Shown in pieces: positions 3,153-8,506 of a DNA stretch of 64,000 bases. A program made the position numbers and the translations under genes. The stretch comes from Solirubrobacterales bacterium. GTDB taxonomy: Bacteria > Actinomycetota > Thermoleophilia > Solirubrobacterales > Solirubrobacteraceae. The stretch is taken from NCBI GenBank assembly GCA_025963965.1, contig JAOPZS010000136.1:1-64000 (forward strand), in the 5' to 3' direction. How positions within the stretch are numbered: position 1 is the first letter of the stretch; every line of letters begins with the position of its first letter. A model generated the notes under the pieces. It was not told the DNA's origin. It saw nothing but the letters and a program-made list of their open reading frames with translations, and did no database searches.

Positions 3153-4181
3153 GTGGCGGTCGACGCCAACGGCGCGGATCTGGGACCCGCCGAGGTCGCA
3201 GCCGGCGCGGCGATCGCCGCCGAGCAAGGTGCCCGCGTGATCCTCTTCGGGCCCGCCGCCGAGCTGGGCGATCCACCGTCCGGCGTCGAGATCGTCGACG
3301 CGCCCGTGTCTATCGCCAAGGCCGAGGACCCTGTCAGCGCCGCCCGGTCGACGCCGACGGCCTCGATCGTGATGGCCGCACGCGCGGTCGCCGAGGGCCG
3401 TGCCGATGCGCTCGTGTGTGCGGGAGGGACAGGCGCCGCGCTCGCCGCCGGCACGTTCAACATCAAGCGCGACCGCGGCATCTACCGGCCGGCGCTCGCC
3501 CTGCCGCTGCCCGTGCCGGGGCATCCGGTGACGCTTCTGGACGTGGGCGCGAGCGCCGAGGCGCGGCGGGAGCACCTCGTGCAGTTCGCCTTCATGGGCG
3601 CCGCGCTCGCCCGCATCGTGCTCGGCGTGCCGAGGCCGCGAGTCGGGCTGCTGTCCAACGGCGAGGAGGCCGCCCGCGGCGGCCCGCTGGTCGTCGAGAC
3701 CGGGATCGAGCTGCGCGAGCGTGCCGCCGCCGGCGCCGACGGGTTCGAGTTCGTCGGCAACATCGAGGGAGGCGATCTCGTCAACGGCCGCGCCGACGTC
3801 GTCGTCACCGACGGCCTCACCGGCAACATCACGCTGAAGGTGCTCGAGGGCACCTCGCAGGCGATACTCGGGGCGATCCGCGACGTCGCGGCCTCCTCGA
3901 AGCGGGGGAAGGTCGGGGGGCTGCTGCTGAAAGGCTCACTCGGCGGGCTGCGCGCCGAAATCGATCCGGAGACAGCCGGCGGCGCGTATCTGCTCGGACT
4001 GCGCAGACTCGGCGTCGTGCCGCACGGGCGGTTCAGCCGCCGCGGCTTCGCCCAGGCGATCCTGCGGGCGCGTCTGGGAGCCAGCGCTGACATCGTCGGG
4101 CAGACCCATGCAGCGCTTGCCGCGGCGGGCGCGCTGAGGCGCTCGCCTGCGTCCGCGCCGGACGCTAGGTTGCGCCGATGA
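3153..4181 (+). CDS. plsX: Phosphate acyltransferase PlsX
   Basis: A 342-residue PlsX, which converts acyl-ACP to acyl-phosphate for phospholipid synthesis. The usual AVDAMGGD N-terminal motif appears as AVDANGADLGP directly at the GTG start, so the N-terminus is short. Family blocks are LLDVGASAE, LLSNGEEA, NIEGGDLVNGRADVVVTDGLTGN and the C-terminal HGRFSRRGFAQAI. Its TGA overlaps the acpP ATG (ATGA), which implies translational coupling with the acyl carrier protein that delivers its substrate. Confidence 0.93.
   Translation: MAVDANGADLGPAEVAAGAAIAAEQGARVILFGPAAELGDPPSGVEIVDAPVSIAKAEDPVSAARSTPTASIVMAARAVAEGRADALVCAGGTGAALAAGTFNIKRDRGIYRPALALPLPVPGHPVTLLDVGASAEARREHLVQFAFMGAALARIVLGVPRPRVGLLSNGEEAARGGPLVVETGIELRERAAAGADGFEFVGNIEGGDLVNGRADVVVTDGLTGNITLKVLEGTSQAILGAIRDVAASSKRGKVGGLLLKGSLGGLRAEIDPETAGGAYLLGLRRLGVVPHGRFSRRGFAQAILRARLGASADIVGQTHAALAAAGALRRSPASAPDARLRR
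4166..4171 (+). promoter_or_regulatory. -10 hexamer TAGGTT, possible internal leaderless promoter for acpP
   Basis: TAGGTT, within the 3' end of plsX, lies 6 bases before the acpP ATG. It could add acpP transcription beyond that of the operon. Confidence 0.35.
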
Positions 4182-4450
4182 GCTCTCTGACCCGCGAGCA
4201 GGTCCTTGCGCTGATCCGCGAGCACCTCGCCGACGAGCTCGACCTCGACCCGGCGGTGATCAGCGAGACGACCCGCTTCAAGGAGGATCTCGAGGCGGAC
4301 TCGCTCGATCTGTACACGCTCGTCCAGGAGCTCGAGGACACCTACCGGGTGGCGATGTCCGACGAGCAGGCGGCAGAGATCCTGACGGTCGGAGCGGCCG
4401 TCGAGTTCGTGCTCGCCAATGACCCCACGGGCGATGCCGAGCACGCGTAG
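4178..4450 (+). CDS. acpP: Acyl carrier protein
   Basis: A 90-residue acidic four-helix ACP with the phosphopantetheine attachment serine in EADSLDLYTLV (near residue 42; the commoner motif is DSLD). It overlaps plsX by 4 bases and is followed 14 bases later by rnc. It carries growing acyl chains in fatty acid synthesis. The C-terminus is slightly longer than in E. coli AcpP. Confidence 0.92.
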   Translation: MSSLTREQVLALIREHLADELDLDPAVISETTRFKEDLEADSLDLYTLVQELEDTYRVAMSDEQAAEILTVGAAVEFVLANDPTGDAEHA

Positions 4451-4464
4451 CGACGAGGACGACG

Positions 4465-5136
4465 ATGCTGCTGGCCGAACTCCTGGACGAGCTGCCGGAG
4501 GATCTGGCGCGCCAGGTGTTCACGCACGCCTCGTGGAGCGAGCGGCGGGGCGACTCCTACACGCGCCTCGCGTTCCTCGGCGACAGCGTGCTCGCGCTCG
4601 CCGTGACGGCCTACCTGTACCCGCGCCTGGAGGCCGAGCGGTTCGGGGCGGGGCGTCTGACGAAGATCCGCGCCCAGGCCGTATCGGGGGTCTCCTGCCG
4701 GGCGGTCGCCGAGCGGCTGGCGCTGCCGGACCGGCTGCGCGCCGCGGCGCCACCGGGGGTGCGGGAGAGCGCGGCGGCGCTGATCGGAACCGAGCGCGTG
4801 CTGGCATCGGTGATCGAGGCGGTGATCGGCGCGTGCTACCTGCACAGCGGCTACGAGCGCACGGCGGAGGCGGTCGTCGAGGCGTTCGCGCCGGAGATCG
4901 AGGATGCGCTCAGCAATCCGGTCGACTTCAAGTCGGCCCTGCAGGAGCTGCTCGCCAGGCGCGGCGCGGAGGTCGGCTACGAGGTGAGCAGCGAGGAGGG
5001 TCCGCCGCACGAGCGCGTCTACTCGGTCGTTGCGCTGGTCGACGGCGAGGAGCTCGGCAGCGGTCGGGGACGCAGCAAGAAGCACGCCGAGCAGGAGGCC
5101 GCGCGAATGGCCGTCGAGCGGCTCTCCGGCGAATGA
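4465..5136 (+). CDS. rnc: Ribonuclease III homologue with degenerate catalytic site
   Basis: A 223-residue protein with an RNase III domain (about 1-145) followed by a double-stranded-RNA-binding domain (about 150-220, DFKSALQELL ... GRSKKHAEQEAARMAV). The signature usually read as ERLEFLGD is TRLAFLGDSVL, and the second acidic cluster usually read ADTVEALIG is ASVIEAVIG. Relative to E. coli numbering this gives E38 to T, E41 to A and D114 to S, with D45 and E117 kept. The position between acpP and smc is the normal one for rnc. The fold is clear; full catalytic activity is doubtful. Confidence 0.88.
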   Translation: MLLAELLDELPEDLARQVFTHASWSERRGDSYTRLAFLGDSVLALAVTAYLYPRLEAERFGAGRLTKIRAQAVSGVSCRAVAERLALPDRLRAAAPPGVRESAAALIGTERVLASVIEAVIGACYLHSGYERTAEAVVEAFAPEIEDALSNPVDFKSALQELLARRGAEVGYEVSSEEGPPHERVYSVVALVDGEELGSGRGRSKKHAEQEAARMAVERLSGE

Positions 5137-5155
5137 GCCCGAAGGTGGTGCCCCG

Positions 5156-8100
5156 GTGCGGCTGAAGTCGCTGACGCTGAACGGATTCAAGTCGTTCCCC
5201 GACCGTACGCGCCTGGAGTTCGGCCCCGGTGTGAGCGTCGTGGTCGGCCCGAACGGCTCGGGAAAGTCGAACGTCACCGACGCGGTCCTGTGGGCGATGG
5301 GCGAGCAGTCGCCGCTGGCCGTGCGCGGTCAGTCGATGCAGGACGTGATCTTCGGCGGCGGCCGGGGCGTGCAGGCGCGCAGCGCCGCCGAGGTCGAGAT
5401 CGTGCTCGACAACTCCGACGGGACCGTCGAGCTGCCGCTCAGCGAGATCTCGATCGTGCGCCGCCTGGAGCGTGGAGGCGAGGGCGGCTACCGCCTCAAC
5501 GGCGCCCGCTGCCGGCTCAGCGACGTGCTCGAGGTGCTCTCCGACACGGGGCTCGGCAAGGAGACCCATTCGGTCATCTCGCAGGGGCGAGTCGAGGCGA
5601 TCGTGACGTCCAAGGCGCGCGACCGCCGCCTGCTGATCGAGGAGGCGGCCGGGCTCGGCAAGCACCGCAAGCGCCGGCGCCGCGCGCAGCTGAAGCTCGA
5701 ACGAACACAGGAGAACCTCGACCGGGCGCTGGACATCGAGCGAGAGGCCCGTACGCGGCTGCGGCCGCTGAAGCGACAGGCCGAAGCGGCCGAGCTGCAC
5801 GAGCGCCTCGAGCGCCAGATCCTCGAAGCTCGCTGGGAGCTGCTGCGCGACGTGCTGCGCGCGCGCCGCATCGAGCTTCATGGCGCGCAGGAGCTCGTCG
5901 CCAGCGCGCGTGCCGAGCGCACCGCGATCGAGACATCGCTCGAGCAGGTCGTGGCCCGGCGGGGCGAGGCCGAGCGGGCGCTGGCAGAGCGCGCGCAGCG
6001 ACACGACGCGTTGTCCGGCCGTCGCTACGAGGCGCGCTCGGCGCGCGACCGACTGGCGCTGCGGGCCGAGCAGGTCGGTGCGGACGCCGAGCGGCTGGCG
6101 CGACGCATCGAGCGTGTCGAGGCCGAGCTCACGGAGCTCGCGAGCGGTGCGGATCAGGACGAGGCGCCGGCCCAGGACGGAGACGGCGGGCGGCTCGCCG
6201 AGCTTGAGGCCGAGCTGGCGGAGATCGAGGCGCGGCGCTCGGAGGAGCTCGAGCAGGAGCTGCTCGAGCTCGAGCGCCAGCTCGTCAGCCAGCGCGAGGC
6301 GCTGCAGGGCGCCGAGGCGAACGCCGGAGCGGCCCGCGCCGCGCGCGACCGCGCCGATCAGGCCGCCGAGCAGGCCCGCGGGATGCTCGCCGTCGCCGAG
6401 CGCGACACGCACCGCGCTCGCGGTGAGGCGGCGCGAGTGGGCGCCGAGCTTGCCGCGGCCAACCAGTTTCTGCGCAGCCATCCGGGGGTCAGCGGCGACG
6501 GCCCGCGCCCGCTCAGCTCCGAGCTGCGGGTGGCCGACGGCTATGAGCTGGCCCTGGCGGCTGCGCTCGGGGGGCGTCTCGACGCTTCGCTCGTCGAGGA
6601 CGTGCCGGGCGCCGAGGCGCTGCTCGACCGGGCCGGCCCGGAGGGCGGCAGCGCGCTGCTCGCAGCTCCCGCCGGTGCCCCGGCCGCGCAGAGTGCCCCC
6701 GCCCAGCCGTCCGCGCCGGGTGCACGGCGGCTGACGGAGCTGTTGAGCGGGCCGCCCGAGGTGCTCGCGCTGGCCAACCGCCTGCTCGCCGATGCCTGGG
6801 TCGTCGAGCGTCTCGAGGACCTTCCCTCCGACTTCGCTGGGATCGCCGCGACCAAGCGCGGGCGCGTCTGGTTCGCTCGCTCCGGCGAGGTCCGCCAGCT
6901 GAGCGAGGGCGGCACCGAGCTGCTGCTGGCCCGACGCAACGAACGCGAGCGGCTCGTCTCCGAGGTCGAGCGCGTCGCGCAGGCCGAGCTGGTCGCGAAG
7001 ACCGCCGGTGAGCAGGCGCTCGAGGGCGTACGGGAGGCCGAAGCAGCGCGCAGCGCCGCCGAGGATGCGCTGCGCGTCGCCGAGCGCTCGGTCACGGAGG
7101 CTGGCGAGGCGGTGCGCTCCTCCGGGTGGCTGATAGAGCGGCGCCGCTCAGCTCCCGCCGAGGGCCCGCTGGCCGTCCGCAAGGCGGAGATCGAGGGCGA
7201 GCTGGCGGCCGAGCGCCGGCAGGCCGCGCAGCTCGCGGCGCAACGTCAGGCGCGGCTGACGCGTCAGGCGCGGCTGCGAGCGCAGCGCGAGGCCGATCTC
7301 GCCGCGGCGCCGCTGGCCGAGCGGCTGTTGGCGGCGATCTCGGTTGCCGCCGAGGCGCTCGCTGCGCGTCTTCAGACGCTCGAGGCCGAGCTCGCCCAGG
7401 ATCGTCGCGCCGGCGAGGAGATGGCCGGGAGGCTGCGCGAGTGCGCAGCCGAGGAGGCCGGCATCCAGGCGGCGCTCCGCGCAGCCGGCGAGGCGGTCAC
7501 CGAGGCCGAGGTGGCAGCGCAGCGGCTGCGCGACCAGGCCGCTGAGGCCGAGCTCGAGAGCGCCGCGGTGGCCGAGCGCCTGGGCCTTCCGGCCGCCGGC
7601 GAGGGGGCCGGCGCCGACGAGGAAGAGAGGCCGCGTGAGGCCGACGCGCAGGGAGCACCCGCGACAGGGCAGGCCTCTGCGCCGATCGAGCCGCTGGAGC
7701 CCGAGCGCCGGCGCGAGCTCGAGGAGCGCGTGCAGCGGCTTGCACGCCGGCGCGAGCAGCTCGGCCCGGTCAATCCGCTGGCCCAGGACGAGTACGCCGA
7801 GGCGGTCGAGCACGTCGAGGAGCTCGAGGCGCAGCGCTCGGACCTCGAGACGGCGCTGCGAGAGTTGCGGACGCTGATCAAGGAGACCGACCGGCAGATC
7901 GAGGAGACCTTCGAGCAGACCTTCCAGGCTGCGGCTCGCAACTTCGAAGAGCTCGTGGGAGACGTCTTCCCGGGTGGCACAGGACGCTTGCGCCTGGTCG
8001 AGGACGAGCAGACCCAGCGGCCGGTGCTCGGCGGCCAGTCGTTGCCGGCCGGCGCCGAGGAGGACCAGGACGCGGCGATCGAGGCGGAGGCGGAGGCGGA

Positions 8101-8506
8101 GGCGCGCGAGGAGGACCCGGCGGAGGAGCAGCTGCCGGGCGTCGAGATCGAGATCACGCCGGCGGGCAAGTCGAGCAAGCGGCTGACGCTGCTCTCCGGC
8201 GGTGAGAAGTCGATGACGGCGCTGGCATTCCTGTTCGCGGTGTTCCTCGCCAGGCCGTGCCCGTTCTACATCCTCGATGAGGTCGAGGCGGCGCTGGACG
8301 ACCTCAACCTCGACCGTTTCCTGGCGCTGCTGCGCCGCTACGCAGGGCGTGCGCAGTTCATCGTGATCACCCACCAGAAGCGCACGATGGAGGCTGCGGA
8401 CTGGCTGTTCGGCGTCTCGATGGGAGGCGACGGAGTCTCGAAGGTGCTCTCGCGGCAGCTGCCCGGCGAGGAGCCACAGGACGCGCCCGTCGCGGCGCTC
8501 GCCTGA
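5156..8506 (+). CDS. smc: Chromosome segregation protein SMC
   Basis: A 1116-residue SMC ATPase, which folds chromosomes with ScpA/ScpB. Walker A GPNGSGKSN begins at residue 31. Long coiled-coil arms rich in E/A/R flank a hinge near residues 450-490 (SSELRVADGYELALAAALGG). The C-terminal head has LLSGGEKSMTALAFLF near 1013 and Walker B YILDEVEAALDD. The GTG at 5156 gives the canonical MRLKSLTLNGFKSF start, 20 bases after rnc. The head carries an acidic insert between LRLVEDE and GVEIEITP, partly encoded by four GAGGCG repeats (8081-8104). Confidence 0.95.
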   Translation: MRLKSLTLNGFKSFPDRTRLEFGPGVSVVVGPNGSGKSNVTDAVLWAMGEQSPLAVRGQSMQDVIFGGGRGVQARSAAEVEIVLDNSDGTVELPLSEISIVRRLERGGEGGYRLNGARCRLSDVLEVLSDTGLGKETHSVISQGRVEAIVTSKARDRRLLIEEAAGLGKHRKRRRRAQLKLERTQENLDRALDIEREARTRLRPLKRQAEAAELHERLERQILEARWELLRDVLRARRIELHGAQELVASARAERTAIETSLEQVVARRGEAERALAERAQRHDALSGRRYEARSARDRLALRAEQVGADAERLARRIERVEAELTELASGADQDEAPAQDGDGGRLAELEAELAEIEARRSEELEQELLELERQLVSQREALQGAEANAGAARAARDRADQAAEQARGMLAVAERDTHRARGEAARVGAELAAANQFLRSHPGVSGDGPRPLSSELRVADGYELALAAALGGRLDASLVEDVPGAEALLDRAGPEGGSALLAAPAGAPAAQSAPAQPSAPGARRLTELLSGPPEVLALANRLLADAWVVERLEDLPSDFAGIAATKRGRVWFARSGEVRQLSEGGTELLLARRNERERLVSEVERVAQAELVAKTAGEQALEGVREAEAARSAAEDALRVAERSVTEAGEAVRSSGWLIERRRSAPAEGPLAVRKAEIEGELAAERRQAAQLAAQRQARLTRQARLRAQREADLAAAPLAERLLAAISVAAEALAARLQTLEAELAQDRRAGEEMAGRLRECAAEEAGIQAALRAAGEAVTEAEVAAQRLRDQAAEAELESAAVAERLGLPAAGEGAGADEEERPREADAQGAPATGQASAPIEPLEPERRRELEERVQRLARRREQLGPVNPLAQDEYAEAVEHVEELEAQRSDLETALRELRTLIKETDRQIEETFEQTFQAAARNFEELVGDVFPGGTGRLRLVEDEQTQRPVLGGQSLPAGAEEDQDAAIEAEAEAEAREEDPAEEQLPGVEIEITPAGKSSKRLTLLSGGEKSMTALAFLFAVFLARPCPFYILDEVEAALDDLNLDRFLALLRRYAGRAQFIVITHQKRTMEAADWLFGVSMGGDGVSKVLSRQLPGEEPQDAPVAALA

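What the first reader, a model, noticed from the sequence alone, without database searches (positions are those of the whole stretch)
4465..5136. RNase III lacking key catalytic carboxylates
The signature helix reads TRLAFLGD instead of ERLEFLGD, and the second acidic cluster reads ASVIEAVIG instead of ADTVEALIG. By alignment to E. coli, E38, E41 and D114 are lost, while D45 and E117 remain; the dsRNA-binding domain looks normal. Two of the four metal ligands are gone, so this may be a dsRNA-binding protein without cleavage, or an enzyme with an altered metal site.
Basis: partly seen in the sequence, partly recalled or inferred. Interest (0 to 1): 0.65.

Follow-up and report, generated by a model that had tools for sequence, protein, structure and literature searches.

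The report
RNase III with a rewired active site
One whole bacterial order carries, as its only RNase III, an enzyme that has lost a normally universal metal-binding glutamate but gained a basic residue exactly where Dicer and other eukaryotic RNase IIIs have a catalytic lysine, so it probably still cuts RNA, with a reworked chemistry.

Summary
The window's only RNase III (223 aa, between acpP and smc) has Ala for E41, Ser for D114, Thr for E38 and, unreported, Ala for E65; D45 and E117 remain. In 100 distinct sequences of its order (Solirubrobacterales) E41 is Ala in 100, while D45 and E117 are kept in 100. E41 is kept in 105/105 sampled outside the order; the tree needs one change. With E41 loss came a gain: E. 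coli position 110 (Ser/Ala in most bacteria) is Arg/Lys/His in 97/100. This is four residues before D114, exactly where eukaryotic RNase III (KpDcr1 K217, Rnt1 K313, Dicer K1806) has a catalytic lysine contacting the attacking water or scissile phosphate. The three exceptions all carry Glu at 114. The nuclease domain is under strong purifying selection, and long 16S and 23S processing stems persist in these genomes. A dead dsRNA-binder is therefore unlikely. Best reading: an active RNase III keeping the leaving-group metal (D45+E117), with a basic residue doing part of the job of the metal once held by E41. Shown: sequence, phylogeny, substrates. Inferred: activity and chemistry. A new variant of a known enzyme, directly testable.

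The parts
4465..5136 (+). rnc, single-copy RNase III, 223 aa (nuclease domain about residues 1-150, dsRBD 156-220)
   Evidence: AlphaFold model pLDDT 93.5, best PDB match E. coli RNase III 7r97 Z 20.0
4561..4563 (+). T33 = E. coli E38 (RNA-surface residue; variable in the order)
   Evidence: E 57, G 15, A 10, T 8, S 5, other 5 of 100
4570..4572 (+). A36 = E. coli E41 (Mg-A ligand) replaced by Ala, invariant in the order
   Evidence: A 100/100; E in 105/105 outside the order
4582..4584 (+). D40 = E. coli D45, Mg-B ligand, retained
   Evidence: D 100/100
4648..4650 (+). A62 = E. coli E65, RNA-surface acid, lost across the order
   Evidence: A 77, I 13, P 7, E 1 of 100
4675..4677 (+). Q71 = E. 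coli T74, order-specific Gln
   Evidence: Q 93/100; 5% in sister families, 2% elsewhere
4795..4797 (+). R111 = E. coli S110, new basic residue at the position of the eukaryotic catalytic Lys
   Evidence: R 93, K 3, H 1, S 3; aligns with Drosha RIIIDb Lys and RIIIDa His; PMC5357909, PMC13334501
4807..4809 (+). S115 = E. coli D114, lost
   Evidence: S 76, E 24
4816..4818 (+). E118 = E. coli E117, essential ligand shared by both metals, retained
   Evidence: E 100/100
4930..5124 (+). dsRNA-binding domain (PF00035), intact
4178..4450 (+). acyl carrier protein gene upstream (context plsX-acpP-rnc-smc-ftsY)
   Evidence: gene named from the sequence
5157..8506 (+). smc downstream
   Evidence: gene named from the sequence

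Best explanation
This is the vertically inherited, single-copy RNase III of the order, still a working dsRNA endonuclease, with a rewired active site. D45 and E117 are kept, so the metal that holds the leaving 3'-OH (Mg-B) is kept. The Mg-A site on the attacking-water side lost its side-chain ligand E41 (now Ala) and the second-shell acid D114 (now Ser). In exchange a basic residue, nearly always Arg, sits at E. coli position 110, one helical turn before 114, and is proposed to hold the scissile phosphate or orient the attacking water, as the lysine at that position does in Dicer, Rnt1 and Dcr1. E65 loss, and E38 loss in part of the order, should tighten RNA binding. Expected substrates: the long stems around 16S and 23S precursors. 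Shown: sequence changes, single origin, constraint, substrates present. Inferred: activity, role of Arg110, metal number.
For: A41 100/100, D45 100/100, E117 100/100, basic residue at 110 97/100, and the 3 exceptions all have Glu114. Outside the order: E41 105/105, basic at 110 in 5/105. One change of E41 on a tree built without the trait columns; order monophyletic, SH-aLRT 99. Position 110 = D114-4, the same spacing as Eh K112/D116 and human Dicer K1806/D1810; K217 of KpDcr1 bonds the attacking water, K313 of Rnt1 the product phosphate, and lysine mutation lowers cleavage (PMC5357909; PMC13334501); R111 aligns with Drosha Lys/His. Mg-B uses D45+E117, Mg-A E41+E117, D114 no direct bond (PMC9291653). 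E. coli E41A and D114A keep weak activity in excess Mg, E117A/K/Q none, D45A low (PMC8708148). Nuclease omega 0.05-0.22, below the dsRBD in 8 of 10 pairs, as in intact enzymes. 16S stem 27+ bp in 9/9 order operons, with compensatory changes. No other RNase III domain. Model matches E. coli RNase III, Z 20.0.
Against: No activity has been measured. Single E41A or D114A in E. coli is already weak at normal Mg, and the double change has not been tested to my knowledge. Arg110 could be for RNA binding only. The gain of Arg and loss of E41 happened on one branch, so their link rests on one event (plus one partial reversal: Ser110 with Glu114 in one genus). In the second clade Glu occupies 114 together with Arg110. 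No coordinates of the model could be measured, so the Arg-phosphate distance is inferred from sequence spacing and homologues. RNase J and RNase E/G are present and could take over rRNA processing.
Confidence: 0.55

Rival explanations
1. An active, weaker but otherwise ordinary two-metal RNase III: Mg-A is held by E117, water and phosphate alone, and Arg110 only helps RNA binding.
For: E117 bridges both metals and D114 is not a direct ligand (PMC9291653). E41A and D114A E. coli enzymes are rescued by excess Mg (PMC8708148). Most sister families already live without D114.
Against: The near-fixed Arg/Lys at exactly the eukaryotic catalytic-lysine position, arising on the same branch as E41 loss, would be a coincidence.
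Confidence: 0.22
2. A catalytically dead dsRNA-binding protein acting as RNA chaperone or regulator, like E117 mutants that bind without cutting, or like mitoribosomal mL44 and the KREPB proteins.
For: E41, D114 and E65 are lost; single losses already cut activity strongly. Non-catalytic RNase III domains are known elsewhere (PMC9508840), and mL44 is among the fold matches.
Against: The two most critical residues, D45 and E117, are invariant in 100/100. The nuclease domain is under strong constraint, in 8 of 10 pairs stronger than the dsRBD, the reverse of what a pure binder predicts. No backup RNase III exists while its classical substrates persist.
Confidence: 0.15
3. An active enzyme tuned to another metal (for example Mn2+) because the site is carboxylate-poor.
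For: Mn2+ rescues crippled RNase III active sites (E. coli and C. jejuni D45A and E117D equivalents, PMC3839596).
Against: Nothing in the sequence points to a particular metal; fewer carboxylates do not by themselves favour Mn2+.
Confidence: 0.08

Closest known systems
Bacterial class I RNase III (E. coli Rnc, Aquifex aeolicus RNase III, M. tuberculosis RNase III)
   Same: Fold, domain order, signature helix, D45, E117, G44, F42 and dsRBD; vertical descent
   Different: E41 is Ala, D114 Ser or Glu, E65 lost, E100 loop lost, basic residue at 110; scores below the TIGR02191 cut-off (154.9 against 166.25)
Eukaryotic RNase III (Dicer, Drosha, Rnt1, Kluyveromyces Dcr1, Entamoeba RNase III)
   Same: Basic residue four positions before the D114 equivalent, on the active-site helix
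   Different: Those keep all four carboxylates as a rule, use Lys (His in Drosha RIIIDa) and also a conserved Asn; here Arg is used and E41 is gone; convergence, not descent
Engineered 'bacterial Dicer' E. coli E38A/E65A/Q165A (EcEEQ)
   Same: The window protein has T, A and A at those three positions
   Different: EcEEQ keeps E41 and D114; Ala at 165 is common in Actinomycetota; E38 is kept in 57/100 of the order
Non-catalytic RNase III-like proteins (mL44, trypanosome KREPB6/7/8)
   Same: Degenerate signature motif
   Different: Those act as partners or ribosomal proteins and lack key catalytic residues; here D45 and E117 are invariant and the protein is the genome's only RNase III

Membership tests
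Bacterial RNase III (class I) | RNase III nuclease domain followed by a dsRNA-binding domain | tested here: met
   PF14622 8e-22, PF00636 7e-16, PF00035 3e-16; fold Z 20.0 to 7r97
Bacterial RNase III (class I) | Descent from the same gene | tested here: met
   Tree: order nested with sister families of the class, apart from the rest of the phylum
Bacterial RNase III (class I) | NCBIfam equivalog cut-off (TIGR02191, 166.25 bits) | tested here: not met
   154.9 bits for the window protein
Bacterial RNase III (class I) | Four active-site carboxylates E41, D45, D114, E117 | tested here: not met
   Only D45 and E117
Bacterial RNase III (class I) | Divalent-metal-dependent cleavage of dsRNA with 2-nt 3' overhangs | not testable with these tools
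   Needs purified protein
Bacterial RNase III (class I) | Processing stems around 16S and 23S rRNA in the same genomes | tested here: met
   16S 9/9 order operons, scores 21.8-27.9 against shuffle maxima of 15.8 or less; 23S 8/9, one of them marginal, the ninth seen. The window's own assembly holds no 16S gene
Eukaryotic-type RNase III active site | Basic residue four before the D114 equivalent | tested here: met
   R/K/H in 97/100, aligned with Drosha Lys/His
Eukaryotic-type RNase III active site | All four carboxylates retained | tested here: not met
   E41 is Ala in 100/100
Eukaryotic-type RNase III active site | Conserved catalytic Asn | tested here: inconclusive
   The Asn could not be placed without coordinates; no order-specific Asn was found, but an order-specific Gln lies at E. 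coli 74
Non-catalytic RNase III-like protein | Loss of D45 and/or E117 equivalents | tested here: not met
   Both invariant

The most novel reading that the evidence does not exclude
A naturally evolved RNase III in which an arginine has replaced one of the two catalytic metal ions, giving one-metal-plus-Arg cleavage of dsRNA, and which reached the eukaryotic catalytic-lysine position by convergence.
Probability: 0.3. Interest if true: 0.8.

Novelty: new variant of a known kind. Interest (0 to 1): 0.62.

Why it matters
RNase III is the textbook two-metal dsRNA nuclease, and its E41 is treated as universal. A whole order that fixed Ala there, while fixing a basic residue at the position of the eukaryotic catalytic lysine, offers a natural experiment on what each metal and the lysine do, a question open in the Dicer literature (PMC13334501 calls the exact role of such lysines unknown). 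It can be tested by a few point mutants in E. coli RNase III. It also warns that clean motif rules may mislabel a conserved gene as inactive or miss it.

Tried and rejected
Second rnc or Mini-III in the genome: none (the assembly is about 90% complete). Sequencing error: rejected by recurrence. Compensating acidic residue: in the nuclease domain only D45 and E117 are invariant acids; other frequent acids (window 30, 110, 131) are not invariant, so no replacement carboxylate was found apart from Glu at 114 in 24/100. Horizontal transfer: rejected by the tree. A first duplex calculation without limits was too permissive for GC-rich RNA and was replaced by ungapped stems with shuffles. A pattern search for RLAF.GD in 246 genomes of the phylum hit only the seven of this order. 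Literature searches for Thermoleophilia or Solirubrobacter with RNase III found nothing; most subscription papers are not held.

Full report
Observation. Pfam finds the nuclease domain and an intact dsRBD. NCBIfam's RNase III equivalog model matches nearly end to end but below its cut-off, 154.9 against 166.25 bits. Alignment to E. coli gives E38->T33, E41->A36, D114->S115, with D45=D40 and E117=E118 kept.

Is it one odd gene? No. The assembly holds a single RNase III domain. RNase III was found in 139 of 151 genomes of the order, and sequences were read from loci of that search, from named genomes (Solirubrobacteraceae, Thermoleophilaceae, Patulibacter, Conexibacter) and from further regions. 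In 100 distinct sequences, position 41 is Ala in 100, D45 and E117 are kept in 100, position 65 is Ala/Ile/Pro in 97, position 114 is Ser in 76 and Glu in 24. Outside the order E41 is Glu in 105 of 105 (21 of the same class, 84 others).

History. On a tree built with the six trait columns masked, the order is one clade (SH-aLRT 99), the class is one clade (100), and position 41 needs one change. Most sister families of the class have already lost D114 (Ala, Asn, Gly; one family keeps Asp) and the E100 loop but keep E41 and E65; the rest of the phylum is mostly canonical. So erosion came in two steps: D114 and the loop first, then E41 and E65 at the base of the order. The branching among the sister families is not well resolved.

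What was gained. A scan for residues fixed in the order but rare elsewhere gave, besides A41, a basic residue at E. coli position 110 (S or A in most bacteria) and Gln at 74. Position 110 is R 93, K 3, H 1 and S 3 of 100; all three Ser cases carry Glu at 114, so every member has either a basic residue at 110 or an acid at 114 (the three Ser cases are one genus, so one event). Basic residues at 110 occur in 5 of 105 outside. Position 110 lies four before 114 and seven before 117, one face of the same helix (helix 110-128 in the AlphaFold model, pLDDT 93.5).

Why that position matters. Eukaryotic RNase IIIs carry a catalytic lysine four residues before the D114 equivalent: Entamoeba K112 with D116, human Dicer K1806 with D1810. 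In KpDcr1 K217 bonds the attacking water; in Rnt1 K313 bonds the product 5' phosphate; mutation lowers cleavage; it is described as not conserved in bacterial enzymes (PMC5357909). QM/MM work gives K1806 a role in stabilising charge on the substrate (PMC13334501). In the alignment the window's R111 stands against the Lys of Drosha RIIIDb and the His of RIIIDa.

Which ligands are really gone. In the E. coli post-cleavage complex Mg-A is held by E41 and E117, Mg-B (leaving group) by D45 and E117, and D114 touches no metal (PMC9291653). E38 and E65 are RNA-surface acids whose removal strengthens RNA binding (same paper). E. coli E41A and D114A retain weak activity in excess Mg; D45A is low; E117A/K/Q are dead (PMC8708148). 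The residues invariant here are the two that matter most.

Is it still a nuclease? Three indirect tests. (a) Selection: pairwise omega in the order is 0.05-0.22 for the nuclease domain and 0.09-0.45 for the dsRBD, the nuclease lower in 8 of 10 pairs, as in intact enzymes; a pure RNA binder should show the reverse. (b) Substrates: in all nine order operons read, a 16S leader-spacer stem of 27 or more bp scores 21.8-27.9 against shuffle maxima of 15.8 or less; 23S stems score above shuffles in eight (one only marginally), and the ninth, whose 23S end was misplaced in that script, shows the stem. Four positions of the 16S stem change on both sides with pairing kept. The window's own assembly holds no 16S gene, so this rests on relatives. 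(c) No other RNase III is available, although RNase J and RNase E/G are present and could in principle process rRNA.

Mechanism proposed. Mg-B stays on D45+E117 and holds the leaving 3'-OH. On the attacking side, E41 is gone; Arg110 holds the scissile phosphate or orients the water. Whether Mg-A is absent or merely weaker is not known. I put about 0.85 on 'still cuts dsRNA' and about 0.55 on the full reading with Arg110 in the active site.

Membership. It is an RNase III by descent, fold and domain order. It fails the sequence definition (four carboxylates, equivalog cut-off). It probably works like one; this was not measured.

Limits. No coordinates of the model could be read, so no distances were measured. 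Uniqueness outside Actinomycetota rests on about 65 sequences. Arg gain and E41 loss share one branch, so their link cannot be tested by repeated origins.

Noticed in passing
L195:2705-6439 (genome G051; contig length equals Conexibacter sp. S30A1 NZ_CP097127.1): The 23S rRNA gene is about 740 nt longer than in the other operons and holds an ORF (4822-5370) with a LAGLIDADG-like motif GWVIGFVDGEGCFSI: probably an intron or insert with a homing endonuclease.
   Followed up: partly
L152-L171 (sister families of the class): D114 and the GxGE loop with E100 are lost in most sister families that keep E41, so these acids are dispensable more widely than the mutant literature suggests.
   Followed up: partly
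L192-L201, 16S leaders and spacers: A shared element TTTGAAAACTCAACAG (16S) and CTTGAAAACTGCACAG (23S) forms the processing stems, most with the same G-G mismatch beside the AAAA/TTTT run; it may be a fixed RNase III recognition or cleavage mark in this class.
   Followed up: no
L064, L202, L203: One genus has Ser at 110 together with Glu at 114, an apparent partial reversal of the active-site swap.
   Followed up: partly
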